Origin: Fragilaria crotonensis
Taxonomy: Eukaryota > Bacillariophyta > Fragilariophyceae > Fragilariales > Fragilariaceae
DNA: 50,550 nucleotides
Direction of reading: 5' to 3'
Assembly: GCA_022925895.1 (NCBI GenBank)
Contig: JAKSYS010000463.1
Coordinates: 1 to 50,550, forward strand
Shown: positions 5,758-30,075 of the stretch, in pieces
Layout: every line of letters starts with the position of its first letter
How positions within the stretch are numbered: position 1 is the first letter of the stretch
The notes under the pieces: generated by a model
What the model saw: only the letters and a program-made list of their open reading frames with translations
The model's database searches: none
Told to the model about the DNA's origin: nothing
Translations under genes and position numbers: made by a program

Positions 5758-6809
5758 TGTCTCCCCTTCGTCAGGTGTGCTATTTTCTTTGTATTGTGCA
5801 CTTGGATCCTGATCGGGTTTGGGATTGTGGTTCTTTGTGATAGAGTCGAGGTTTCGGTTTTGTCGCCTCCTTTTCCCTTTCTGTTTTCTTGGCGAGGTGC
5901 CATGTTTTGTTGTGTCCAAAGATTGTACCGACATGTTGTCGGATTGATCGCTTGATGCAGTGGAATCGTCTTCGTCAGCATCTGTTGAGCCGGAGGAGCC
6001 TGCCAGAGATGTCATCATCTTAGTTAAATGAGCAAACGTTTGTCGAAATTCGGCAGCCTGTGCAGATGCTTCCTGTCTCATGCCCAGAATGTTTTCATTT
6101 GTTTCTTTCCGGAGTTCCAGAACATTCTGTGATGTATCTTTACAGAAGGTCATCGTAGTGATCACTCGTTCTTCTAGATCGTCAAAACGTGTGTTCACGG
6201 CGAGGAAAGCCGCCTGATGTGCTCGGATGTCAATGTTCTGTTGTCGAATAACGCTTTCCAATTCGTGGAAACGTTGTTGAGTCGCCAGCGACTTAGTCAT
6301 GAGTGAGTTTGTGGTGCTTGTGTCCGTCATGGATTGTTGAGTGGTGCTTTCTAACCGTTGCTGTGTATCCTTCTTTGTTTGGAATCGAGGGGTCAAATCT
6401 GGAAACTCTCTTTGTGCAGTGTCCGAATATCGTTTGGTCTGGGATTCCATGCTTGGTGGTCGATATGTTGGTGTCGGTGATGTGTTGTTTGGAGGTTGCC
6501 GGATGGATGGAGGTGCGTTTTCCCACGTGGTAGTTGTGCTGAGGCCCTTGATTAGATTGAGATTGTGGTTTGCTGCCGCTGTCGGTACGTAAATCTCCGC
6601 TGGGTGGGCTTGAGCGATTCTTTCCGCAAAGTGGTTTTCTCGTAGGCTGAACGGAGAGATGCTTTCTTTGTAGATTGCGAGAGCTTGTCTTGCGCGATTC
6701 AGGTTTTCTACCGGCACCAGGAGGTGAGCCCTTTGATTGTCCCCACCGTTCTCGGCATCGCACCTTAGACTGTTGCCCTCCTCGTCGAGCAGTGTTTTGG
6801 CCCAGGCAT
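5755..6809 (-). pseudogene. LINE ORF1 (gag-like), C-terminal half
   Basis: The open frame continues without an ATG right up to the insertion junction near 6810, starting DAWAKTLLDEEGN and continuing RCDAENGG, so this is the C-terminal part of a longer protein. It contains a proline/threonine-rich stretch and then a heptad-like helix (around QQRFHELESVIRQQNIDIRAH to RKETNENILGMRQEASAQAA), likely a coiled coil for trimerisation. An acidic serine-rich segment follows, then a strongly basic tail (SPRKQKGKRRRQNRN) suited to RNA binding. No CCHC knuckle is seen. The N-terminal half is at 18958-20443. The 1.05-kb frame is itself uninterrupted. Confidence 0.75.
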
Positions 6810-6817
6810 CTAAGGAC

Positions 6818-7331
6818 CCAAAATTGAATTAATGCAGTATTTATGAATATTTGAACTCGTACAACGCATTAAAAATTCATATTTGGTTGCTCAAAGTACA
6901 TAACAGACACTACGTATTCCTACTATAAAAATAATTCATATACCTGAACTAAAAAAACGCGTATGTAAAAGTAAATAAACAGTAGTTGTCTTCTGTGACT
7001 TTCAACAAACTTACTTTTCTGTACATAATTAAGTCTACGAATACATATAGACATTTTTGTAGGTTTTTTTAATGCCAGTACGGATAAACGAGGTTAAACT
7101 TTCTTACATAGGTGCGCGCTCAGACAAGTCTTTCCTGTTTATTAGTGTGCATAACCAGTTTCCAATAATTATCCGTGTTTGTGTGTTTGCTTGGTTGGCT
7201 ACTGCCTACCAATCTGAGTGGTATTTGGTTGAAGCCAGCTGTTGGTTGTGCCACATGGATTCTTTAGCAAGCACGCACGTACATTCTTGTTTGCATCCAA
7301 CCAAGACTACATATTCCACACAATACAAGTC
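6818..7331. other. AT-rich flank, no gene
   Basis: AT-rich sequence between the insertion junction and the transposase start. No coding motif is seen. It probably holds the transposon's left subterminal region and the transposase promoter. Confidence 0.5.
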
Positions 7332-10220
7332 ATGTCAAAATCAAACAACAGCCACATGATGTTGTCTCTGTTTGTATGCTACAACCCACATTGCATGAGC
7401 CGTCGCAACTCATTTGCTACTGAAAAGGCGTTTACAATGCATTTTCAGCGGTCTCCGCTGTGTTTGGAGTTTGTTCGGCGCGAACAGACCCACCCGCCGA
7501 CCGCCCCAATTGTTCAACATTGTGCCAATGCAACTTTTGACGACACTGTCTTTACCACTACAAAACGGCCTCGACAATTGCGTTGCGAAATTGTGAACGA
7601 TATCTCGCGTTTGGCGCCTCCTTCGTTGCCATTTGCGGCACTGCCCAATCTGACCTCGGAAATCGAGGAAGAAACAATACTTGACGACATGCAGCATGAT
7701 ATTCAAATTCTTGTGGACGATACAATTGAAGAAACATCATGTCCTATGCAACATGATACGATTGCTTCGTCGCAATCATTCATGTTTTCTACAGATCAAA
7801 AATGGACCATTTCTTTGTTAAAGATATTGGATGACATCAATGCACCTGATTACGCATTTGAATCGGTCTTAAAATGGGCGCGCAACGCCCAAACTGATGG
7901 GTACTCATTTTATCCTGATGGTGGGCAATCGCGCATGAAAAATGTTGATGTATTGTTCAAGTCAGTAACAAATGCACAGAAACTGTTGCCTTCTGTGTTG
8001 CCTGTCAATGTTCCACATGGTCCTCCGTGCGAAGTCATCGCTTATGAATTTGCCCCTCAGCTACTCAATTTGTTACAAAATCCATCCATTATGACCGCTG
8101 AAAATCTCTTGATTGATTTGTGCAACCCATTAAAACCATATCAAAGCCCAGATGGAAGGCTTGGTGATGCAATATCTGGGAGTGTTTATCGCAATGCATA
8201 CGACCGCATGATCACCGATCCAACACGACAACTATTTGTTCCAATTATTCAATGGATTGACCGCACTCATGTTACTGGCAATGCACGATTTTCATTGAAG
8301 CCTTACATGTTTTCACCTGCCATTTTTAAAGAAGAGTTTCGTCGGACAATACAAGCATGGGGATATCATGGGTTTCTTCCAAAACCAAAACTATCATCCG
8401 CACAAAATCAAACAAACATGAAACAAGGTGATAACATTCGCAATTACCATGCCCAGTTACATGCAGTGTTGCGATCAATGTGTATTGCAGGTCCCCACTT
8501 GACAAACGTGTTATTACCCATTGGTCCTTATGGTAAGATGCAAGTGGACGTAATAACTTGTATCCTTTTTGTTATTCAGGATATGCAAGAAGGTGATATG
8601 TTGTGTGGTCGCTTTGGGTCGCACGGCAAAGGAATTCAACGCCATTGTCGTGCTTGTGATGTAAATTACGAGCAGCTTGACAATCCATACGTTCAATGTG
8701 TTTTTTTGAATGCTTCTGAAGTTTCGGAAATAGCACACAATGGCGATGTGGACATTCGCAAACGGTGGTCACAACATGAGTTGAATAATGTCTTTGATTA
8801 TGTCCCAATGGCAGACCCATTGCGTGGAATTTATGGATCAACTCCCGTGGAGACTATGCATGCTTTTCGAAAGGCATGATTGAAATGGTTACCTTTTGGT
8901 TCTTGAGAACGTTCCACCAAGCAAATTGGCTGCGCTAGATGCTCTGGCAATACGCTTTCACCGAACGCATCGTCAAACAATTCGCAGCACATTTCCTGCA
9001 ACCGATTTTAGCCAAGGCATCACCAATTTAACCAAAATATCAGCATCGGAACGACTGGGCTTGGTATTTCTGTTTGTTATTCTTGCGCAATACGATGAAG
9101 GCTGGCAGATTTTGCAATCGACATTCGACGCACAACACTCTAAAGCAGTGCTTACAACTGATGATGCTGTCGTCACTTTGCCAAAACCATCAGTTGACCT
9201 TCCGGCTGTCCTTGCCGTATTTGAGGCTCTGTTATGTTTTGATCAATGGCTGAATCAAGCTACGTATTGGACCAAACAGCACCATGCAGAATCCATCTTT
9301 GTTGTTCAGAAAGCAATACAAACATTGTTGCAAATGTGTGTTGATGACATACCACTGGCTAACGGCAAGTCATGGAAATTTCAAAATTTCATGAATTGTT
9401 GCACCTACTTGACAATATTGAACGGTTTGGTGCGCCTATAAATTATTGCGCGCAGCGTCCCGAATCATTGTTGATTCCAGTTGCCAAAAAACCCGGACGA
9501 CGAGCTCAAAAGCGTCATAATGGTTCTGCTTACGAATTACAATCCGCTCAACGATTGTCATATTCGCTTATGATAAATGCAGTTTATACACGGATTTGGG
9601 ATACATCTGCCAACCATGTCAGATCAAACGTTTCACATGTAAAAACTCCTTGCATTAATATTGTGCCGGAAACGAGTACTGGTAACGCAACATTTGCAAC
9701 ATTGACTTGTGATTTCAAAACCGGATATCAGTTGTGTTGGCATACACAAACAAAAGTTTCCTTGATGCACATCCCCGACAATGTTTTACAATTTGTTTCA
9801 CACCAATTTGGTTCTAACGTTCGTATGTGCACTGAATTGCGGCACGGATCATTCACATATCGTTGCCATCCATCATTTCAATCTGGTGGTTCTGTCTACG
9901 ATTGGATGAATGTCAGATCAACAAACAAAAAAAATAATGTTGTCTCAAGTTTGCCGTGCCGATTGGCCATTGTTGTGATTACCAAAAATCCTCAACCTTT
10001 CCGATTGGTGGTTCAATTTGGAAAAGCACCAACCGGCATTAAATCGGTATTGCTTACAGAATGGGAGATGTCTAAAGACTTAAGTGTCATCGAACCAAAG
10101 GACATTGAAGGTCCATGCTTTGTTATATCAATCAAAGATGATGGTTCGAAAATCCTTCAAACTTTGCCACGCCATTTGTGGGCACTCGAATTTACTGAAC
10201 CAGTTGAGTCAGCCAACTAA
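7332..10220 (+). pseudogene. Plavaka/CACTA-like DDE transposase, frameshifted
   Basis: The first in-frame ATG is at 7332. The N-terminus has a zinc-finger pattern (CYNPHCMSRRNSF...MHFQRSPLC). The core shows a candidate catalytic triad: D in PIIQWIDRTHVTG (8259), D in LFVIQDMQEGDMLCGRFG (8580) and E in YGSTPVETMHAFRK (8850), plus a CRAC knuckle between the second D and E. The downstream part reads KFHELLHLLDNIERFGAP and RPESLLIPVAKKPGRRAQK, as in large Plavaka/CACTA-type transposases. Frame changes occur at about 8874, again before 8896, and near 9390, so the copy is inactive as read. It converges on the protease gene. The family assignment rests on motif resemblance, not on a search. Confidence 0.72.
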
Positions 10221-10281
10221 TAATGTTTCAAGTGAGCATAAAAATGTAGTTATATGTAAAGAGTTAACCTTGCCACTCTAG

Positions 10282-11729
10282 TCAAGCTTGCAAAGTCATT
10301 CTTGCAAGTTTCTGTTTTCGTTGTCCTTCATAACAAAAAATATACCCGCGCCGAAACCCAACAAATGTACTTTTCACCAATGGAGTAGAGGTGCAATAAT
10401 TTAATGCCTCGTCACACAATGGAAGGGCAACTGTTTCGTTTGCATCATATACATAACCTCCATGTATGCATACAGCATGACAACAGCTTCCGTCGGATGC
10501 ACTCAAGACACCAAGCAAGAGGTGACGTGCATCCAAACCAGCTTTCAATCGAAACGGTGAGGCAGGCGACGAATAACAATCCAAGAAGGAAGAACGGATC
10601 GTGCATGATTCACAACATTCTCCAAAGCATCGACGACAGCACCTCTCAATATTTCTTCACCAAAAGTATCAATGATAGATGCTTCTTTGTGAAAGCCAAT
10701 GGAAAATAGAGCGGATGCAAGAGACTTTGACACACACAAATCTTTGCCATCAGTCTGATTAAAATGGACCACAGGCGCACCAGAACGTTGCAAGTTTGGA
10801 TGATGGTGAAGATGTGATGGCTTATAATCGCCAACAGGTACATCCACAAATCCACGAAAATTGCCCGACAACTTCAATTCCTTAACAAATGCTTCGCCAA
10901 ATGCCATACCCACAAATTCTTCTTCCAAATTGGTCTCCTTATTGTTTTCCATTCGTCCGACCCATTTACAATTTGATGAGACAGGCTTGCGAATGATACT
11001 TTTTTGCCACTTTGCCTCCTCTTTTTCCAAGCGCTTTTTTTCTGCTGCCTCTGTTGGGTTCTTAGCAATCTTTGACGGCGTGGGAGGAGGATATTGCATT
11101 GGAGGATTGCGTCGTCTTGGAATGGCCTGATCCATCAGAGATGCTTTCCCAATCGTGCTTGTCTGAAGCTCATCAAAGCCAAGTTTCTTCCGCCGTTTGG
11201 CATTCGTCACATCTTTTTCATTAATGACTTTTGCCATTGCTTCATAATCGAGAACATGACGAACTTTAGGAGGGACATATCGGACCCGGACGACTTTATG
11301 CTTTGCAATCCTCACTTCCACATCTCGTGGAACGTCAGTCCACTTGTCTGTTTGATGCATGTTAATGATGTGCTGAATGTCGATTTCAGCATATTCACTT
11401 CTGACCCACTCCTCTTCAACCTTGAGTTCTTCTTCAGCAACTACCATTTTGTTAGGATGGGACTCGTCTGGTTCTTGGTACACCAAACGAGCATAAAAGC
11501 TGTTGTTAGCCTTTTCAAATCGAAGACCCTTAACCATCGTTAGACGGGTAAACATGAATTCATTTGTCAACTCCTTCGTGAACTGAGCCCGTTCTTCTTT
11601 GATACCTTTAATCAATTCACGAATCCATTCCCTCTTAGATTCAGAGCAATCCTTGGCTTTCATTTTCTTTGCCCAGTGCTCAATTGTCTTCTGGTGATCC
11701 TTTTCACTCGACCATTTCCATTTTTGAAG
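10282..11729 (-). pseudogene. C-terminal papain-like protease module of transposon protein
   Basis: The largest piece (11663-10545, 372 codons from its first ATG) is open upstream of that ATG to about 11729, so it probably continues the Ulp1 frame after a one-base shift in an A-run. It is charged and helical. It then shows GFVDVPVGDYKPSH and DLCVSKSLASALF with a candidate nucleophile Cys at 10736-10734. After a shift near 10580 the next frame has SCCHAVCIHGGYVYDANE, with a His at 10479-10477 and an Asp/Asn soon after. The C...H...D/N order and spacing suggest a papain-like (OTU/C39-like) fold. Substrate and exact family are unknown. The end is 61 bp from the transposase stop. Confidence 0.5.
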
Positions 11730-13795
11730 CTTTCCGCAATAAAGGTAGCCAGTTGCGTTTTGAAAGCTTTGTCAATGGCGATGACTGTATCATCAGTGGC
11801 CGACGTGGCGTGGTACTTACGATAAAAAGCCTCAATAGTACCTGTGGATTGAGTGGAAACCTTATGCATCTTTGCCTCTTTCGAAAGCACAGTGTAATCA
11901 GCATTGTCATCATCCTTGTCAACTTTGAGGTTGCCTTTGGGTTCTTCATCGTTCTTGTCTTCAAAGAAAACATCATCAAGTTGTAATCTTTTCAACAAAT
12001 CACCACCTTTGCGCTTTTTGGTGGGTGTGTGAACGTGGAGCACGACAGGTGTGAGGAGTGAAAGATCTTCAATCCTTTCAATTGTGACCTTTTGCTCTTC
12101 ATCTTCATCTTCATTGGCACCTTCCGTCTTTGTGGGAGTATCTTTTAGTTCCTCACTTTTGTCAGCCAATGCATCCTCGGAAGCATTTATCTTCACAGGT
12201 GTGTCTTCAAGTGCATTTTGCATAATGACATCAGCATCAGTCACATTCGTCGAAGCAGGTTTCCTATCCGGCGAAGATAAATCGATTGTTGCCTTTGACT
12301 TCGGAATCATAGACACAGAATCTTTCTTCCCTGAGGAAGATAAATCAAAAGTGGCATTGTTATCCGGACTCTGCGTGATATCGATTGCAGCAGAAGCGGT
12401 TGAACGAGGATTGGATTGAGGTTTGCGTTCCTTTCTAGCATCGTCTTCAAGTTCCTTAACAAGTTTGCGAAGTTTACCTTTTGGCATTGCCTGACGCTTC
12501 TTCATGCTGTCAAAATCTGGCCAACTGAGGGTAGACCTCAAGGTGTCAGTGTATAATGGATTGACCAAATTGTCTTTGTTGACTCGTTTTGGTAGCACGT
12601 CAAAATGCAACGCAGCCATGCGGTCAAACACAACAAACCATTCTAAGCGGAGCATGGTTAGGTAATCCGCAAATATCAAGTCATCTTTCTTCGTTGGGAG
12701 TGCTTCAAAGAATCGCCTATCAAAATAGGCAAAACACTCTTTTGTCTCATCATCTTCATGAAGTTCCCACTTGGTTTGACGCCCGAACTGTTCGTTGAAA
12801 GACATTTGCTCCACTTTCTCACTGCAAATGTTTCTCAATATGATACCGATGGCAGCAACAATGCCTAAGCCACAATTACACCCGTCCACTTGTTTTGGTA
12901 ACATATTTTCTTCTGCAATGCGCAAAGCAGGAAAAGATTTTGTTCCAAGCATATTGCCTTCAAACTTCTTCCCGAATGGGGAAAGCCACTTCATTGGAGC
13001 ATCTGATGCGGGCATGCTTTCTTCGTGAATTTCGTTGCTGTAACACAAATTCAAAAACCATATGATACCGGTATCAATGGCCACCTGGCGCGTACCGAGA
13101 GGGTCAATGCTGCAATAACGGAAAAAGCACGGTCGCAGGGAGTTGTTGGTGTTCTCAATGTCCTCCACATTCTCACAAATGCTTCCAGGATTGAAGACAA
13201 ATGTAGCACTCCAATGTTTTCCATTCTCGTTTTGTGGAAACACTAACACCTTCTTAGAGAGCAAGCCTGGATTTCGCTCAATGATGTGGTTTACAATGTA
13301 ATCCTGTTGCACCTGTTGCGCTTTCTTAATGGAGCTTGAATCCGCCTTCAAAATGTTGAAGATCAACTCCGCAAGTTGCGTTTGCGGCATTGCTGCATTG
13401 TCTTTTTCCAATTGAAGCAATGCTTTCAAACGTGCGTGGGCCGAAAACCCAGATTTAATTGTGTTGGAGGAATGCACTGGCAAGATGAAAGCCGCATCTT
13501 CGTACCTTCCATCAAGAGATAAAATCGAAAGCATCAAATCAATCTCACCTGTTGAAAACCATTTCATTCCTCTGTCTGAAGTATGCTGTTTGCGGCGTGC
13601 CAGCGTCATTTCACCTTTAAGCTTCAGGGAATCCGCTGGCAACAATGGCTCCAAAGGAAGGGGAAACAGCTTGCAAATCAATGGAAGTGATGCAAATAAA
13701 CTCTCCGCATCTTTTTGTGCATACACTAATCTTCCACCGCCGATTAACCGAGGAGGGGTATTGACACCAAAACGGAAGAACTCTTGGAGCCACAT
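11660..13795 (-). pseudogene. Ulp1/C48-like cysteine protease module
   Basis: A 711-codon frame contains a Ulp1-type (SUMO/NEDD8 protease) fold. WFSTGEIDLMLS is at residues 79-90, catalytic H194-W195 in NGKHWSATFVF, D231 in CSIDPLG, and Q302 with C308 in KQVDGCNCGL. The Gln-to-Cys spacing is exactly that of Ulp1 proteases. C48 proteases cleave SUMO-like tags; in plant CACTA and MULE elements they are carried as accessory genes. After about residue 440 the protein is acidic, serine/threonine-rich and probably disordered (repeated ATIDLSS-like motifs). It ends in ATGA overlapping the next ATG, but both neighbouring frames extend past these points. I therefore read the whole as one broken gene with the GNAT piece upstream and the papain-like piece downstream. 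Confidence 0.8.
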
Positions 13796-13911
13796 TCAGA
13801 CTTTCGCCAGCCTTCTTCTGCTCGTCGTCGGCGGGCAATGCAGTTGTAAGGTGCTTTAGTCGACCATGAGGCAAATGCATAAGAATTGGACAGACCGTCT
13901 GCTTAGAATCG

Positions 13912-14859
13912 TCACTTGGGAAGCTTAAAAGGTGATGGTTTCTGTCCTCGCAAAGCAGTTTGCAAATGGTCAGGAAGCATTCCAAAACCAGCATCATCTG
14001 TTTCACTCTTGTTCATCCGGCGAAAACCAATCATTGTGTAGAAGTGGAATGCAGCAGGCTCTGAACACTGAACAAACACTTCAATCTTCTTGACATCGTC
14101 TACAGATGCACACCGTTTAATGACCTGTATCAACATGAACAAGCCGACTCCATTGCGGCGCCAGGATTGGATTGAAGGTGGGTGATTTGTTGAATGATGA
14201 GTCACCCCCAAAAGGGAAAGAAAAACAGACATATTTCCGGCATCAATTGGATCACGATGCATTTGAAATGAAACAGCTGACACAGTGGCAAATTGCTGTG
14301 AATATGGCGAGAAGGATTTGGGGACAGCAACTTGTTTGCCGATGCGTAAAGCAAGAATCAAAAGAGTAATGTCCTCTTTCATTGCGCGTTCAATTTGCTC
14401 TTCCATCGAAACAGAGGCATGGAAGATGGTCTCGTAAAATCGTCGAGCACTGGAATAAAAGATCCTTGGAGCTGTTCCAAATGAAACATTCTCCACAGAT
14501 TGCGAACGCAATAAAATATGCCGTAGGTGCCAAACTTTATTTTCATGGTCTTCGGGCTTGAAAATTGCATCTGCAAAAGCAAATCGTTGTACCAATTCGA
14601 AAAGGTGTCAAGTTCTGTTCAACAAGCCAACTTCCAATCCACGCAAATATGCATTGATAACACCACGCTTTTGCTTATGGTTCAGCTTGCCTACCAACTC
14701 CTTTGTTCCATCGAATTGATACACAGAATCCAAGATCAAAGTTGCATTGATTGTTTTTGACACAGTGACAACAACCTCAACGTCACCTTCCACAAGATCA
14801 ATAATGCCTTTATTTGGGAAAGGAAGGTGAGGCTCAGCCTCACGAGCAGCTTCGGCCAT
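13912..14859 (-). pseudogene. GNAT-like module, N-terminal part of transposon protease gene
   Basis: Two pieces lie in the same frame, separated by one in-frame TGA near 14605. The second shows a GNAT acetyl-CoA-binding pattern: SWRRNGVGLFMLIQVIKR (R-x-x-G-x-G/A-type pyrophosphate loop, codons 14160-14143) followed by IEVFVQCSEPAAFHFYTMIGFRRMN (the A-x-x-FY-x-x-x-GF end of GNAT folds). GNAT enzymes transfer acetyl groups to amines; the substrate here is unknown. The frame runs out at 13912. A second frame (SDDSKQTVCPILMHLPHGRL) bridges to the Ulp1 frame at 13795, so two shifts separate the modules. An ATG pair at 14976/14973 could be the original start, but a TGA intervenes. Confidence 0.62.
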
Positions 14860-14976
14860 TACTTGAGCCCTTGCATGGATTCAGCATTTGCAAGATCTGA
14901 CAAGGCCGAAGCTGCCATCTGCTTCTGTATCCATTTCACCGAGCAGCTCACTACTCAAATCTTTGGCACTCATCAT

Positions 14977-15023
14977 GTCGAAGAAACAAAAGTTTGTTGT
15001 GTGCAAGCTTCACAATCCTCAAT
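14977..15023. other. Start-proximal spacer of protease gene
   Basis: A short stretch between the candidate upstream ATG pair of the GNAT/protease gene and the first 168-bp repeat. It may hold the 5' leader; nothing else is recognised. Confidence 0.3.
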
Positions 15024-15191
15024 GACGTCCAATTTCTTGAACGGTCCTACGATGAGCAATAGGACTGCTGCACCGACCAAGTAATGTGGGCTTTACCAGT
15101 AAGGCACGACGTGTAGGCACACTACTCTTTCGAGCAAGATCCTCGCAGGTGACTGGTGTCCACACACAAAACAAGGTGATGCAGCAACAGA
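15024..15191. repeat. 168-bp direct repeat, copy 1
   Basis: It starts GACGTCCAATTTCTTGAACG and is repeated 276 bp downstream with one visible difference (accgacc against accaacc). On the minus strand both copies read as the same short open peptide (TPVTCEDLARKSSVP and onward), so the unit may derive from a 5' exon or leader of the protease gene. Confidence 0.9.
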
Positions 15192-15299
15192 GCAATGTGG
15201 AGAATGAAAGCAACAAATATTGTGTTCTCACAACAGTCAATCAATTGCGTCAGAGCAAAATGAAGTTGTCCAAATCGATCAAAACAAGGCAGGTTCAAA

Positions 15300-15467
15300 G
15301 ACGTCCAATTTCTTGAACGGTCCTACGATGAGCAATAGGACTGCTGCACCAACCAAGTAATGTGGGCTTTACCAGTAAGGCACGACGTGTAGGCACACTA
15401 CTCTTTCGAGCAAGATCCTCGCAGGTGACTGGTGTCCACACACAAAACAAGGTGATGCAGCAACAGA
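15300..15467. repeat. 168-bp direct repeat, copy 2
   Basis: Second copy of the unit at 15024-15191, at an offset of 276 bp. The spacers after the copies differ in length and sequence, but both end in a shared AAGGCAGGTYCAAAG motif, so the array may once have had longer units. Confidence 0.9.
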
Positions 15468-16990
15468 ACCGTGAATCAATCGAAATCAACAACAACACTT
15501 GCTTGCTGATTGTAATGATGCAAAGAAGCACAGCAAGGCAGGTCCAAAGCTGGGAGAAATGAAAGTTGTAAGAATGAGAAGTAAAAACATTGAAGCAGCG
15601 AACAAATCAGCAAATAAATTACACATTCATTGTAGAGTATGAGCGCATCAACAGCGGCATGGATAGTAGAACCATAAACAGTATGTTCTGTCTACAGTAC
15701 ATGCGCGTTGTTTAATGTAGCACAGTACTCGTACCACCATGCAGTAGGAACCACGTGTGTTTGGCGCGTACTACCAGTAGTCGGTCACAGTACAAAATTA
15801 ACGGTACTGGTACAACGATAGTGTGAAAAACACGTAGGTACAGAGTTTTTGTACATCCGGGTTACGAATCGATGCAACAAAAGAAACATGATGTCAACAC
15901 TTCAAAAAGCACAACAACCTTGCCTTTCACATGAAAAAAAACGCTCACCCATTGAACACACAAGATAAGAGGACAGGATGAAACTTACAGATTCGAATTT
16001 GGACGAAAATTGAAAGGAGAGTCAAGGTTAGTGTCAGCACACTTGAGGAAGTGTGCAATGGATGGAGTTGTGTACCCAAAGAAAATCTCGACACGTTAAC
16101 GGTAATTTAACGGGTTTTACGGTTAAAGTCCGATCATGGTAACGGTACTACAGTAATGTTACCATAGCAGTACCATGCATTCCGACCTTCTTTTCCTACG
16201 GTACCAGTACAACTAAACTTAAGATGAGGTCTTTCTTGTTTTACATGTAGACACTGTACTAGCCTATATGCATCGCCATCAAGCTCTTCAATGGCAATCA
16301 TACCCTTTGCTTCGCGTTAGATTGCTAATGTCGTTTGTGCAAAACACATGCTTGGATTATAATTTCAATATTTTATTGCAGAACAAGACAATTACAAATG
16401 TGAGACAAATAACGAATTGGCTACTAGGCATAATGTTGTTGTGACTACTTCTAAAGCCTAGATAATAGATGCGCAAAATAACGTCACTACTTTAAAGGTT
16501 GTATGATAACAATACAAACAAAATGGCAGTACAAACGATTGCGTTATAGTTTTGTTTTCTAGTTAGTTATGCTAGCTACTGCAAACTAACAAAGTAAAAC
16601 AACAACAGCCACCGGTTACATTAGTGCGTAAAACACCACTAAAAATGTAATACAATCGTACTAAAAAAATTGTGGTTAACTTAACTGATGTCATCAGAAG
16701 CCAAAGTTAGCATCACAATAAAAAAGAAGTCGGAGTCAATTAGTCACGACCAATTAAGGTTTGAATTCAAAACTGTGTACAATTTGCCGTAAAATTCAAA
16801 TTGCATGACTAGCTACCTATCTTAATCACACATGTTGATTTTAAATGCACGTCTTCATGATACGTAATGCATTGCACTTAAATAAAATACTTTTGAATCA
16901 TGTAAACACACATTTACTACCATTTGGTGTACATTGCACGCCCAAATTAATCATAAAACCAATTCATCACATAAAATTGAATAACTGAAC
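15468..16990. other. AT-rich intergenic region of the transposon
   Basis: No supported gene. It contains many short TAC/GTAC runs and a perfect 8-bp inverted repeat (ATGGTAAC at 16136-16143, GTTACCAT at 16158-16165, 14-nt loop). It separates divergently transcribed genes and may hold both promoters. Confidence 0.5.
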
Positions 16991-18452
16991 ATGAGTGCAT
17001 TGCATTCGAAAGGTTGGCTTGATCCGTCGTCAGTGCTAGATGATGAACTTCCTGCTGTCTTGAATAAAAACTCACATTACCATAAGTTAAGTTGCAAATC
17101 AAATGTGGTGGCCGACGATGTTACGCACAGTAATCAGACAGCAGTTGTGGAACCACAAAGGCAAGCATATTCATTTATTGATAGATATTCATCACTTCCA
17201 AGTTTGCAATGCAAGCTAAATGCCGCAAATGACATTACGCCAACGTTTGCAATGCACCATGGCAATCCGATTGTACCTTTAAACATGGATTTGCAAAACA
17301 CAATTGCTTCCCAACGCATGATGGTACGCGAATGTGTTAAGACCAAATTGTTTCGTCGCCTTAAATTTTTCAAAAGACGTGCATGGTTTGTTTGATCGAC
17401 GCCAAGGAACTGTGTGTGCAATGATTATTGCAAATTGCAACGTTGAAGCAGAAAACGCGGACGAGTATTGGTGGGCAGATATGCGCAAATTGGTTGTGTG
17501 TACTCACACAGATCGTCGCAACAATGTCATTAAAAATATGCGTCTGCGATTTCGAGTAAGTTTGCAATGCAATTATGACCTTTGTTGTATAAATGCTTAC
17601 AGCGTACTTCAAAAACATTATTGCAGATGGCATGTGTGGAAAAATCGCTCATTTTAAGATAAACAATGGCAAAGAGGCTGATATGGATTACATGTTGGAC
17701 ATGAGAGATAACTTGGTCCATTACGTGCATTTAATTGATATTTATGCACCATGCATTGTTGGACACAGTATTTGGAATAACAAAGCAAACATGGCACGCT
17801 ATTGTGGTGACAGCGCAGCATTGTTTAACGACTTTGTGTTTTCCATGAGTGATGAAGCGTTTATGTTGCTTGTGTTGCTTAACTACACAGAAACATGGAT
17901 GTCAGAATTAGCACGTGAACAATCAAAGGTACGTACAATACAGTGACATTGATTATAAATGATATTTGTTTGTTCTAACGCTTGACATTCAACATTATTG
18001 GCGTGGTGCAACAGCTTCAAGCCAATGTTGGCGGCGGTGTTTTAGTTGTGAGCCAAACAGTGGTGAGTTTATAATGTGTATTTCAGTGACAGGCACGACA
18101 CTTTCTTATGAACCAAATGCGGAGCTCACAATGCAATTTTGTTTAGGCACCAAAATTTACATTGTCACGCAAACAACGTAACGACGTCAATGGTGTAGCT
18201 GGGATTGGATGGACTGAAGAGGGTCTAAGCAAGTTCAATGAATTGTATGATCTTGTCGAGGAAGACCGCATTACGCGGGGTGTGACATTCAACCATGAAT
18301 TGCTGAATGTGTTTCTCGAGCGTCAACGCGTTGTGAAGGTAAATCCTGCACGTCTCAATGCGAGGAAACGCAAGACCATTACACGCGATGATATGGGACC
18401 GATTGATACATCATGCAGGGATGCTTTGCAAAATGGCTTGGTTCCAATTTAG
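16991..18452 (+). CDS. Multi-exon transposon-borne gene of unknown function
   Basis: Not recognised. The start at ATG 16991 follows an AT-rich upstream region. The frame changes near 17367 at a T5/A4 run and continues as KDVHGLFDRRQGTVCAM and ENADEYWWADMRKLVVCTH. Likely introns are 17556-17602 (GTAAGT to CAG, phase not clean), 17929-18014 (GTACGT to CAG) and 18063-18146 (GTGAGT to TAG). The last two give clean phase-0 joins: AREQSK, then LQANVGGGVLVVSQTV, then APKFTLSRKQRNDVNG and GIGWTEEGLSKFNELYDLV. It ends with TAG at 18452. No catalytic motif is seen. It could be a second transposition protein (TnpA-like by position only) or cargo. One frameshift means this copy may be inactive. Confidence 0.5.
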
Positions 18453-18949
18453 CATTGTTTAATCATATCAACTAGTCTTTGGAATACATGTTTTACATTC
18501 ACAAAGATGATAGAGTTGTACTTGAATAACTAGTGAGCCGATACATGAAAGTGCTATTGATGTAAGTATGGTATACCACTATTGTCCTTTTTAAGTACGG
18601 TAATATGTACAACAGGATTACGTTTTATCCAAAAAATGGAGGCATGTTATGGACAAAGCAAATAGAGATATCAGTTTAACTGATCAGCAGGATTCCGTAT
18701 TCTCAATTCTACAGATGTTGGGCGTTAGAACGCAGATGCAAGTAATAATGTTTTGAAGAATTCCATATTCTATTATGCAGTATATGTGCTTAAAAAAGTA
18801 CGGAATATCTAAACGGGACTAGTACATCAGCAGTATCAACGAATAAAATAGTGCGGAAAAACCCAAAATATAGTAAGTAGAAACCCAAAAATAAAATACA
18901 TATTTATTGCTATAGTACAGGACTTGCTTTTTAGATGCAGAGTCTTGCT
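18453..18949. other. Right flank of the transposon, no gene
   Basis: AT-rich, with a twice-repeated GRATTCCRTATTCT motif near 18691 and 18759. It probably holds the right subterminal region. No coding signal is seen. Confidence 0.45.
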
Positions 18950-23363: not shown

Positions 23364-23557
23364 TGTTTAATGCTGGTCGTACTGTCTACTGTACTATCGG
23401 TGGGTCATTATATCGATCCGGACTCGTGATTCAGTCATTATGTGAACGTAACGTGTATCTTTATATATTATATTATAATATTGTTTTAACCTGTTGTTAT
23501 TGATCTTCTTGCTTGTGTGGTAAGTGTTTCTTTGGACATGACGGCTTATCTTAAACA
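23364..23557 (+). repeat. 5' LTR of Copia element
   Basis: 194 bp, TGTTTAA...TTAAACA, identical to 29672-29865. It contains an AT-rich run (tatatattatattataatat) that could be the TATA region of the element's promoter. Confidence 0.97.
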
Positions 23558-23570
23558 GTTTATCAGACCC
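23558..23570 (+). other. Candidate primer-binding site
   Basis: GTTTATCAGACCC follows the 5' LTR directly. It resembles, but does not match, the TGGTATCAGAGC initiator-tRNA site of many Copia elements. The priming tRNA is not determined. Confidence 0.4.
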
Positions 23571-29671: not shown

Positions 29672-29865
29672 TGTTTAATGCTGGTCGTACTGTCTACTGT
29701 ACTATCGGTGGGTCATTATATCGATCCGGACTCGTGATTCAGTCATTATGTGAACGTAACGTGTATCTTTATATATTATATTATAATATTGTTTTAACCT
29801 GTTGTTATTGATCTTCTTGCTTGTGTGGTAAGTGTTTCTTTGGACATGACGGCTTATCTTAAACA
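29672..29865 (+). repeat. 3' LTR of Copia element
   Basis: Identical to 23364-23557. It is preceded by GCGGGGAC, a weak polypurine tract. Confidence 0.97.
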
Positions 29866-30075
29866 CTATACCCTTCTTGTATACCAAAATGTCGAATTTC
29901 ATAAGTCGCTGGTTGGGCTTCACTTTTTAGGTTTTTATGATGAGCTGGACGATGTGCGCATATGGTATTGTCTTATTTAATGCACAGGATTCTCGGAGTA
30001 CAATATTCAACAACCCAGGCGATAAACATGTTTGTGTGAACTAAAGTTACATTCTTACTGACAAAGCGATGAGCA

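What the first reader, a model, noticed from the sequence alone, without database searches (positions are those of the whole stretch)
10282..14859. GNAT-Ulp1-papain-like tri-modular protein carried by a transposon
Minus-strand frames encode, in order, a GNAT-like acetyltransferase module, a Ulp1 cysteine protease with intact H-D-Q-C, and a second cysteine-protease-like module. The frames look like one former protein broken by a few one-base shifts (near 13918, 13800, 11725 and 10580) and one TGA. Ulp1 in CACTA/MULE elements is known. Combination with GNAT and a second protease fold looks unusual and could counter host SUMO- or acetylation-based silencing.
Basis: partly seen in the sequence, partly recalled or inferred. 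Interest (0 to 1): 0.75.

Follow-up and report, generated by a model that had tools for sequence, protein, structure and literature searches.

The report
Transposon protein: acetyltransferase plus two proteases
A 12-kb jumping gene carries, besides the enzyme that moves it, one large protein that joins an acetyltransferase to two different cysteine-protease modules; dozens of related copies in the same genome keep this arrangement, which suggests a tool the element uses on host proteins.

Summary
The minus-strand frames are ORF2 of a 12.13-kb Plavaka-like DNA transposon (6807-18937, CATCTAA ends), convergent with its transposase. My census of this genome gave 89 clusters of such pieces; 33 hold transposase, GNAT, Ulp1-like and C-terminal module, always in the same ORF2 order, and 53 of 54 clusters with comparable strands are convergent. 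Single open frames in other copies span each module junction, so the modules form one protein of about 1,560 aa. GNAT is supported by motif, profile and fold. The middle module looks SENP/Ulp1-like with invariant His, Gln and Cys, but Cys stands at the canonical Asp place in 9 of 9 rows, so 'intact H-D-Q-C' is not borne out. The C-terminal module has a papain-like (C39-like) fold with conserved Q-C-H-D. A ~75-aa repeat lies between them. dN/dS is 0.12-0.34 in the modules, 0.35-0.48 in the linker. Many frame breaks look like assembly indels (2 substitutions against 19 gaps in 9.5 kb between young copies). Ubiquitin-like proteases in transposons are known; my searches of open-licence papers found no such combination. 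Anti-silencing or transposase protection is inferred, not shown.

The parts
6807..18937 (.). Plavaka-like DNA transposon, 12.13 kb, three genes
   Evidence: similarity of four other copies begins at 6807; C259 ends at 18937 and the same end is found in C140
6807..6813 (+). left terminal inverted repeat CATCTAA
18931..18937 (-). right terminal inverted repeat CATCTAA
7332..10220 (+). transposase, Plavaka-like, in three frames (7233-8879, 8884-9441, 9363-10220)
   Evidence: PF18759 E 1.7e-12, 47.6 bits, cut-off 26.3; D, D, CxxC, HxxxH, E in the C259 copy; ATG at 7332
10282..14976 (-). ORF2, multi-module protein, frame broken
14013..14538 (-). GNAT core; RRNGVG acetyl-CoA loop at 14143-14160
   Evidence: PF13673 E 9.6e-5, 22.8 bits against cut-off 23.6
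12602..13564 (-). Ulp1/SENP-like module: His 13214-13216, Cys at the Asp place 13112-13114, Gln 12890-12892, Cys 12872-12874
11700..12601 (-). charged, poorly conserved linker (approximate limits)
   Evidence: dN/dS 0.35-0.48 in the linker
10824..11558 (-). repeat region of ~75-aa units (first unit 11313-11558, last 10824-10967)
10282..10850 (-). papain-like module: Gln 10755-10757, Cys 10734-10736, His 10477-10479, Asp 10444-10446
16985..18452 (+). ORF3, several frames, no Pfam match
   Evidence: near-identical in C259, C140, partly C167; related frame in C449 (E 4e-38); short weak matches in C686 and C2; Pfam none

Best explanation
ORF2 is the established second gene of a Plavaka-like DNA transposon family. 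It encodes one protein: N-terminal GNAT acetyltransferase, SENP/Ulp1-like thiol protease, charged linker, two or three copies of a small repeat, and a C-terminal papain-like thiol protease. Shown here: the anatomy, the partnership with the transposase, constraint, and recent copies. Inferred: the protein is a host-directed helper of transposition in the nucleus. Its protease modules remove SUMO- or ubiquitin-type conjugates from silencing factors or from the transposase, and its GNAT acetylates histone tails or the same targets, so that the element is expressed and its machinery persists.
For: 33 of 89 clusters hold all four modules in one order and 53 of 54 are convergent; transposase and ORF2 distances correlate, r 0.905 (36 pairs) and 0.789 (45 pairs), 0 of 2000 permutations each; dN/dS 0.12-0.34 in the modules; active-site residues conserved: Q-C-H-D of the papain-like module, His-Gln-Cys of the Ulp1-like module, GNAT loop in 10 of 11 rows; folds. 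Analogies seen as passages: Ulp1-carrying VANC (KIU) anti-silencing in Vandal MULEs (PMC13317346), transposon-borne deubiquitinases (PMC9741609), TET/JBP in PlavakaB (PMC12730594).
Against: No activity, expression or localisation data. The Ulp1-like module lacks the canonical Asp, stays below the Pfam cut-off and its own profile finds no C48 chain in the PDB. The GNAT-Ulp1 model is low in confidence, pLDDT 51.8. Foldseek of the papain-like model found no PDB match at E <= 0.001. In one sister lineage the Ulp1-like domain has lost His and Cys. No copy read is open end to end.
Confidence: 0.5

Rival explanations
1. ORF2 is chiefly a partner of the transposase: the repeat region binds element DNA, and the enzyme modules protect the transposase from SUMO- or ubiquitin-driven removal. 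Chromatin is not the target.
For: Convergent pairing and correlated divergence with the transposase; PMC9741609 suggests that transposon deubiquitinases may protect proteins needed for transposition (passages).
Against: Would not explain the GNAT module; DNA binding of the repeats is untested; distant Plavaka-like transposases here have another partner ORF.
Confidence: 0.25
2. The papain-like module processes ORF2 itself: a polyprotein is cut to free the GNAT and Ulp1-like parts.
For: C39 proteases, the best fold match, cut peptides after a double glycine (recalled); the modules are joined by poorly conserved linkers.
Against: By eye no conserved double-glycine site between the modules: the GG in the linker of C259 and C872 is not kept in C874 or C449.
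Confidence: 0.12
3. The modules are captured host genes carried as passengers and now decaying.
For: No copy read in full has an end-to-end frame; gene capture by transposons is common (recalled).
Against: dN/dS well below 1, fixed order in 33 clusters, frames spanning every junction, breaks that look like assembly indels.
Confidence: 0.05
4. The three modules are separate genes that only lie side by side.
For: In the window they lie in different frames.
Against: Single frames span each junction in 7, 3 and 7 sources.
Confidence: 0.03

Closest known systems
PlavakaB transposons of fungi, some with TET/JBP (PMC12730594, passages and section 20)
   Same: Plavaka transposase (PF18759), CATC-type ends, 2-bp duplications in two of three copies checked, an extra gene with a possible epigenetic role
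   Different: fifth terminal base T, not A; ORF2 with GNAT and two proteases in place of TET/JBP; tree not built
Ulp1-carrying VANC (KIU) genes of Vandal MULEs (PMC13317346, passages)
   Same: transposon accessory gene with a Ulp1-type domain
   Different: other transposon superfamily; GNAT and papain-like modules added; the anti-silencing effect is not tested here
Ginger1, Mutator, Helitron and Crypton elements with Ulp1 or OTU domains (PMC2836005, PMC3212892, passages)
   Same: Ubl-protease domains carried by DNA transposons
   Different: the passages name Ulp1, OTU or PHD, no GNAT and no C39-like module
VTD deubiquitinases of Helitrons/Helentrons (PMC9741609, passages)
   Same: papain-like fold proteases in a DNA transposon
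   Different: VTDs have an Asp-x-His active site; here His precedes Asp by 11 residues, as in ordinary papain-like order
C39 peptidase domains (PCAT1, ComA)
   Same: best fold rows for the C-terminal module: Z 8.8, rmsd 3.6, 129 aligned; Q-C-H-D order
   Different: no Pfam or PDB sequence match; no ABC transporter attached

Membership tests
Plavaka transposons | transposase scores above the PF18759 cut-off | tested here: met
   47.6 bits (window) and 51.2 bits (C259) against 26.3
Plavaka transposons | D, D, C(2)C, H(3-4)H, E order | tested here: met
   seen in order in the C259 frame by patterns of my own; partial frames of four other copies show parts; the C(2)C pattern was not found at that place in the distant C170 and C30 frames
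PlavakaB | termini CATCA..TGATG | tested here: not met
   ends read CATCTAA: CATC shared, fifth base differs; hence filed only as Plavaka-like
PlavakaB | 2 or 3 bp target-site duplication | tested here: inconclusive
   TA in C259, AA in C140, none in the window copy
PlavakaB | place in the transposase tree | not tested
   no tree built
GNAT acetyltransferases | acetyl-CoA loop [RQ]xxGxG | tested here: met
   10 of 11 rows that reach it
GNAT acetyltransferases | GNAT fold | tested here: met
   Gcn5 Z 9.6, rmsd 3.2, 146 aligned, but on a model of pLDDT 51.8; profile match to NAA50 E 4.4e-4
GNAT acetyltransferases | acetyl transfer | not testable with these tools
   needs an assay
Peptidase C48 (Ulp1/SENP) | catalytic His and Cys with the upstream Gln | tested here: met
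   9 of 9 rows
Peptidase C48 (Ulp1/SENP) | catalytic Asp | tested here: not met
   Cys in 9 of 9 rows at the aligned place (alignment weak); hence called Ulp1-like, not filed as C48
Peptidase C48 (Ulp1/SENP) | score above the PF02902 cut-off | tested here: not met
   13.5 and 14.8 bits against 20.7
Peptidase C48 (Ulp1/SENP) | SENP fold | tested here: met
   SENP7 Z 12.6, rmsd 3.8, 211 aligned, on a low-confidence model
Papain-like (clan CA) proteases | Gln, Cys, His, Asp/Asn in order | tested here: met
   Gln and Cys 14 of 14 rows; His and Asp 13 of 13 rows that reach them
Papain-like (clan CA) proteases | papain-like fold | tested here: met
   model pLDDT 86, pTM 0.86; best Z 8.8 to PCAT1, 8.5 to staphopain and ComA; Foldseek alone not significant in the PDB
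Peptidase C39 | sequence match to the family | tested here: not met
   no C39 match among 14 rows in Pfam up to E 1, none in PDB profiles up to E 10
VANC/KIU anti-silencing factors | loss of methylation on related elements when expressed | not testable with these tools
   needs expression and methylation data

The most novel reading that the evidence does not exclude
ORF2 is a one-chain counter-silencing machine. Its GNAT writes acetyl marks, its Ulp1-like protease with Cys in place of Asp erases SUMO or another Ubl, and its papain-like protease, of a family not yet named, erases ubiquitin or another GG-linked mark, with the repeat region guiding it to element chromatin. It would be a new class of transposon-encoded anti-silencing factor whose tail has been exchanged within one genome (Cys/His-cluster and DUF6824 versions).
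Probability: 0.2. Interest if true: 0.85.

Novelty: new variant of a known kind. Interest (0 to 1): 0.6.

Why it matters
Transposons are known to carry single Ubl-proteases or DNA-demethylating enzymes. A constrained protein that joins an acetyltransferase with two different thiol-protease folds, kept in dozens of Plavaka-like copies, would widen what elements are known to carry against host control, and each module can be assayed alone. It would also give Plavaka-like elements an accessory gene other than TET/JBP.

Tried and rejected
Separate genes: against read-through. MULE as carrier: the transposase matches Plavaka; a C48-MULE pair lies elsewhere (C707). Decay as the only cause of the breaks: doubtful. 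Relatives outside this genome: none confirmed in IMG/VR with A1 or A3 (15 and 55 pattern matches), none in bacterial and archaeal genomes with A1 (20 pattern matches); I had no eukaryotic collection, so this says nothing about other algae. NCBIfam: nothing relevant for five frames. The two protease modules compared with each other by profiles: no relation seen (E 0.21, probability 0.3). Foldseek of the C-terminal model: no PDB or viral match at E <= 0.001, and several top PDB rows are unrelated folds. Families absent from the VIA lists are not excluded. Whether the sister lineage at C312 belongs with a DDE_Tnp_4 frame nearby was not settled.

Literature, all in open-licence PMC texts only, ten searches: 'Plavaka' with 'Ulp1' 0 papers; Plavaka/acetyltransferase/transposon/protease 1,612 papers with three of four terms, 20 listed, none of those with Plavaka; some searches gave context; GNAT with DNA-transposon terms 0; 'Plavaka' alone 11 papers, 10 listed, two opened for passages; 'transposon-encoded' with GNAT 3 papers, one opened, not relevant; 'DNA transposon' with 'papain-like' 6, one opened. 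Eight papers were opened: passages of all eight, plus one section of PMC12730594. Most subscription papers are not held, so absence is weak.
Full report
WHAT IS THERE. The window is contig C407 of a 62.1-Mb genome in 881 contigs. Long minus-strand frames cover 10282-14880; an ATG pair at 14971-14976 is the likely start. Similarity of four other copies (C259, C140, C167, C872) begins at 6807; on the right C259 ends at 18937, and the same end is present in C140. Both ends read CATCTAA. Two-base duplications flank C259 (TA) and C140 (AA) but not the window copy. The element has a transposase (+), ORF2 (-, convergent with it) and ORF3 (+, 16985-18452). A frame related to ORF3 lies upstream of ORF2 in C449 (E 4e-38); C686 and C2 show only short weak matches.

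THE CARRIER. The transposase matches Plavaka (PF18759; 47.6 bits in the window, 51.2 in C259, cut-off 26.3). The C259 frame shows D, D, CRAC, HELLH and E in order, the signature that PMC12730594 gives for this group (passages and section 20). That paper gives PlavakaB the termini CATCA..TGATG and 2-3 bp duplications; ours differ at the fifth base. No tree was built, so I say Plavaka-like.

COPIES. Searches of the own genome listed 77, 87, 98 and 102 matching pieces for the Ulp1-like module with linker, the GNAT part, the transposase and the C-terminal part; such counts are lower bounds. With further pieces of the same copies left out, they form 89 clusters: 33 with all four; 57 with two or three of the ORF2 modules; 11 with the C-terminal module alone, 6 GNAT alone, 5 transposase alone, 1 Ulp1-like alone; the rest other mixtures. 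In all 33 the order along the coding strand is GNAT, Ulp1-like, C-terminal. Of 54 clusters where strands can be compared, 53 are convergent; C518 is not, and its transposase piece is a distant one. Over 10 loci, transposase distances correlate with those of the C-terminal module (r 0.905, 36 pairs) and the Ulp1-like module (r 0.789, 45 pairs); 0 of 2000 permutations reach either.

ONE PROTEIN. Among 21 sources, single frames span GNAT to Ulp1-like in 7, Ulp1-like to repeats in 3, and repeats to C-terminal module in 7. No copy read is open from end to end; the longest frame is 1,414 aa (C449).

WHY THE FRAMES ARE BROKEN. Window against C259 over 9,511 columns: 2 substitutions, 19 gaps (17 of one base, 2 of two, none a multiple of three). 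C2 against C454: 3 substitutions, 14 gaps. Within ORF2 the window and C259 have no mismatch and 8 frame-changing gaps. Natural decay gives mostly substitutions (recalled), so assembly indels are the likely cause of many breaks. Against this: some states are shared by independent contigs (near 10.55 kb by window and C167, near 11.72 kb by window, C140 and C167), and in pairs such as C449-C686 and C687-C317 substitutions outnumber gaps (109 to 16 and 35 to 7), as expected for older pairs. The near-absence of substitutions between copies with different flanks means recent movement.

GNAT. PF13673 E 9.6e-5 in the window, just under its cut-off; it matches 7 of 13 rows, best 1.6e-5. The profile finds NAA50 (E 4.4e-4) and NAA60. 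The loop [RQ]xxGxG stands in 10 of 11 rows. Gcn5: Z 9.6, rmsd 3.2, 146 aligned.

ULP1-LIKE. SENP7: Z 12.6, rmsd 3.8, 211 aligned, from a model of pLDDT 51.8; Foldseek's best rows on that model are clan CE proteases and GNATs, best E 0.013. Pfam stays below cut-off (13.5 and 14.8 bits against 20.7), and a Ulp1-only profile finds no C48 chain up to E 10. His-Trp, Gln and Cys are invariant in 9 of 9 rows. By a weak profile alignment to four C48 proteins of this genome (E 0.0012, probability 19.5) the canonical Asp place is Cys in 9 of 9.

PAPAIN-LIKE. Model pLDDT 86, pTM 0.86. Foldseek gives no PDB match at E <= 0.001. The second-look aligner puts PCAT1, staphopain and ComA at Z 8.4-8.8, then AvrPphB and Josephins at 6.2-7.7 and USPs near 5; by their titles and my recall these rows are mostly papain-like proteases. 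Middling Z is common, but Gln and Cys are conserved in 14 of 14 rows, His and Asp in 13 of 13 that reach them. In the viral library an unnamed protein is first (E 0.0012) and a phage C39 protein second (E 0.0058).

REPEATS. Three ~75-aa units are related at P 4e-8, 8.8e-5 and 5.8e-4; the middle unit was taken from two near-identical copies only.

CONSTRAINT. dN/dS: GNAT 0.17, 0.17, 0.15; Ulp1-like 0.20, 0.12, 0.27; C-terminal 0.34, 0.14; linker 0.48, 0.35. Three further C-terminal pairs: one with dN 0 at dS 0.01, two without a usable ratio. No confidence limits were computed.

SISTER LINEAGES. C317 and C312 carry a GNAT and a Ulp1-like domain without the His and Cys; they and C687 carry, by eye, a Cys/His cluster, and the papain-like module with its tetrad kept. 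The C687 stretch ends before its GNAT would lie. C860 and C388 carry a similar GNAT and degenerate Ulp1-like domain; in C388 the tail holds DUF6824 (PF20710 E 1.5e-16). The GNAT-Ulp1 core thus occurs with more than one tail.

FUNCTION. Not shown. By analogy with Ulp1-carrying VANC genes (PMC13317346, passages) and transposon deubiquitinases (PMC9741609, passages), a host-directed role against silencing, or protection of the transposase, is most likely.

Noticed in passing
L042 622-2238 and 2-676 (C707): A canonical C48 frame next to a MULE transposase frame; the genome has 58 C48 matches at E <= 0.01, of which only four loci were read.
   Followed up: partly
L043 3-3829 (C860), L044 5747-9299 (C388): GNAT plus a Ulp1-like domain without the catalytic residues; in C388 a DUF6824 tail.
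   Followed up: partly
L023 5317-7182 (C30); similar frames in L022 (C170) and L024 (C471): Distant Plavaka-like transposases (not matched by Pfam in C30) lie next to a different, unnamed convergent ORF of up to 622 aa.
   Followed up: no
L017 3331-5985 (C253): One 885-aa frame seems to join transposase-like sequence to the Ulp1-like part on the same strand, perhaps a rearranged copy.
   Followed up: no
window 15019-15216 and 15295-15492: A 198-nt direct repeat (93% alike, 276 apart) just upstream of ORF2; C874 matches both copies with one stretch.
   Followed up: partly
window 23364-23562 and 29672-29870: A 199-nt direct repeat, 99% alike, outside the element; perhaps the ends of another element.
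   Followed up: no
whole assembly G000: Between several near-identical copies one- and two-base indels outnumber substitutions, so frame breaks in this assembly should be read with care.
   Followed up: yes
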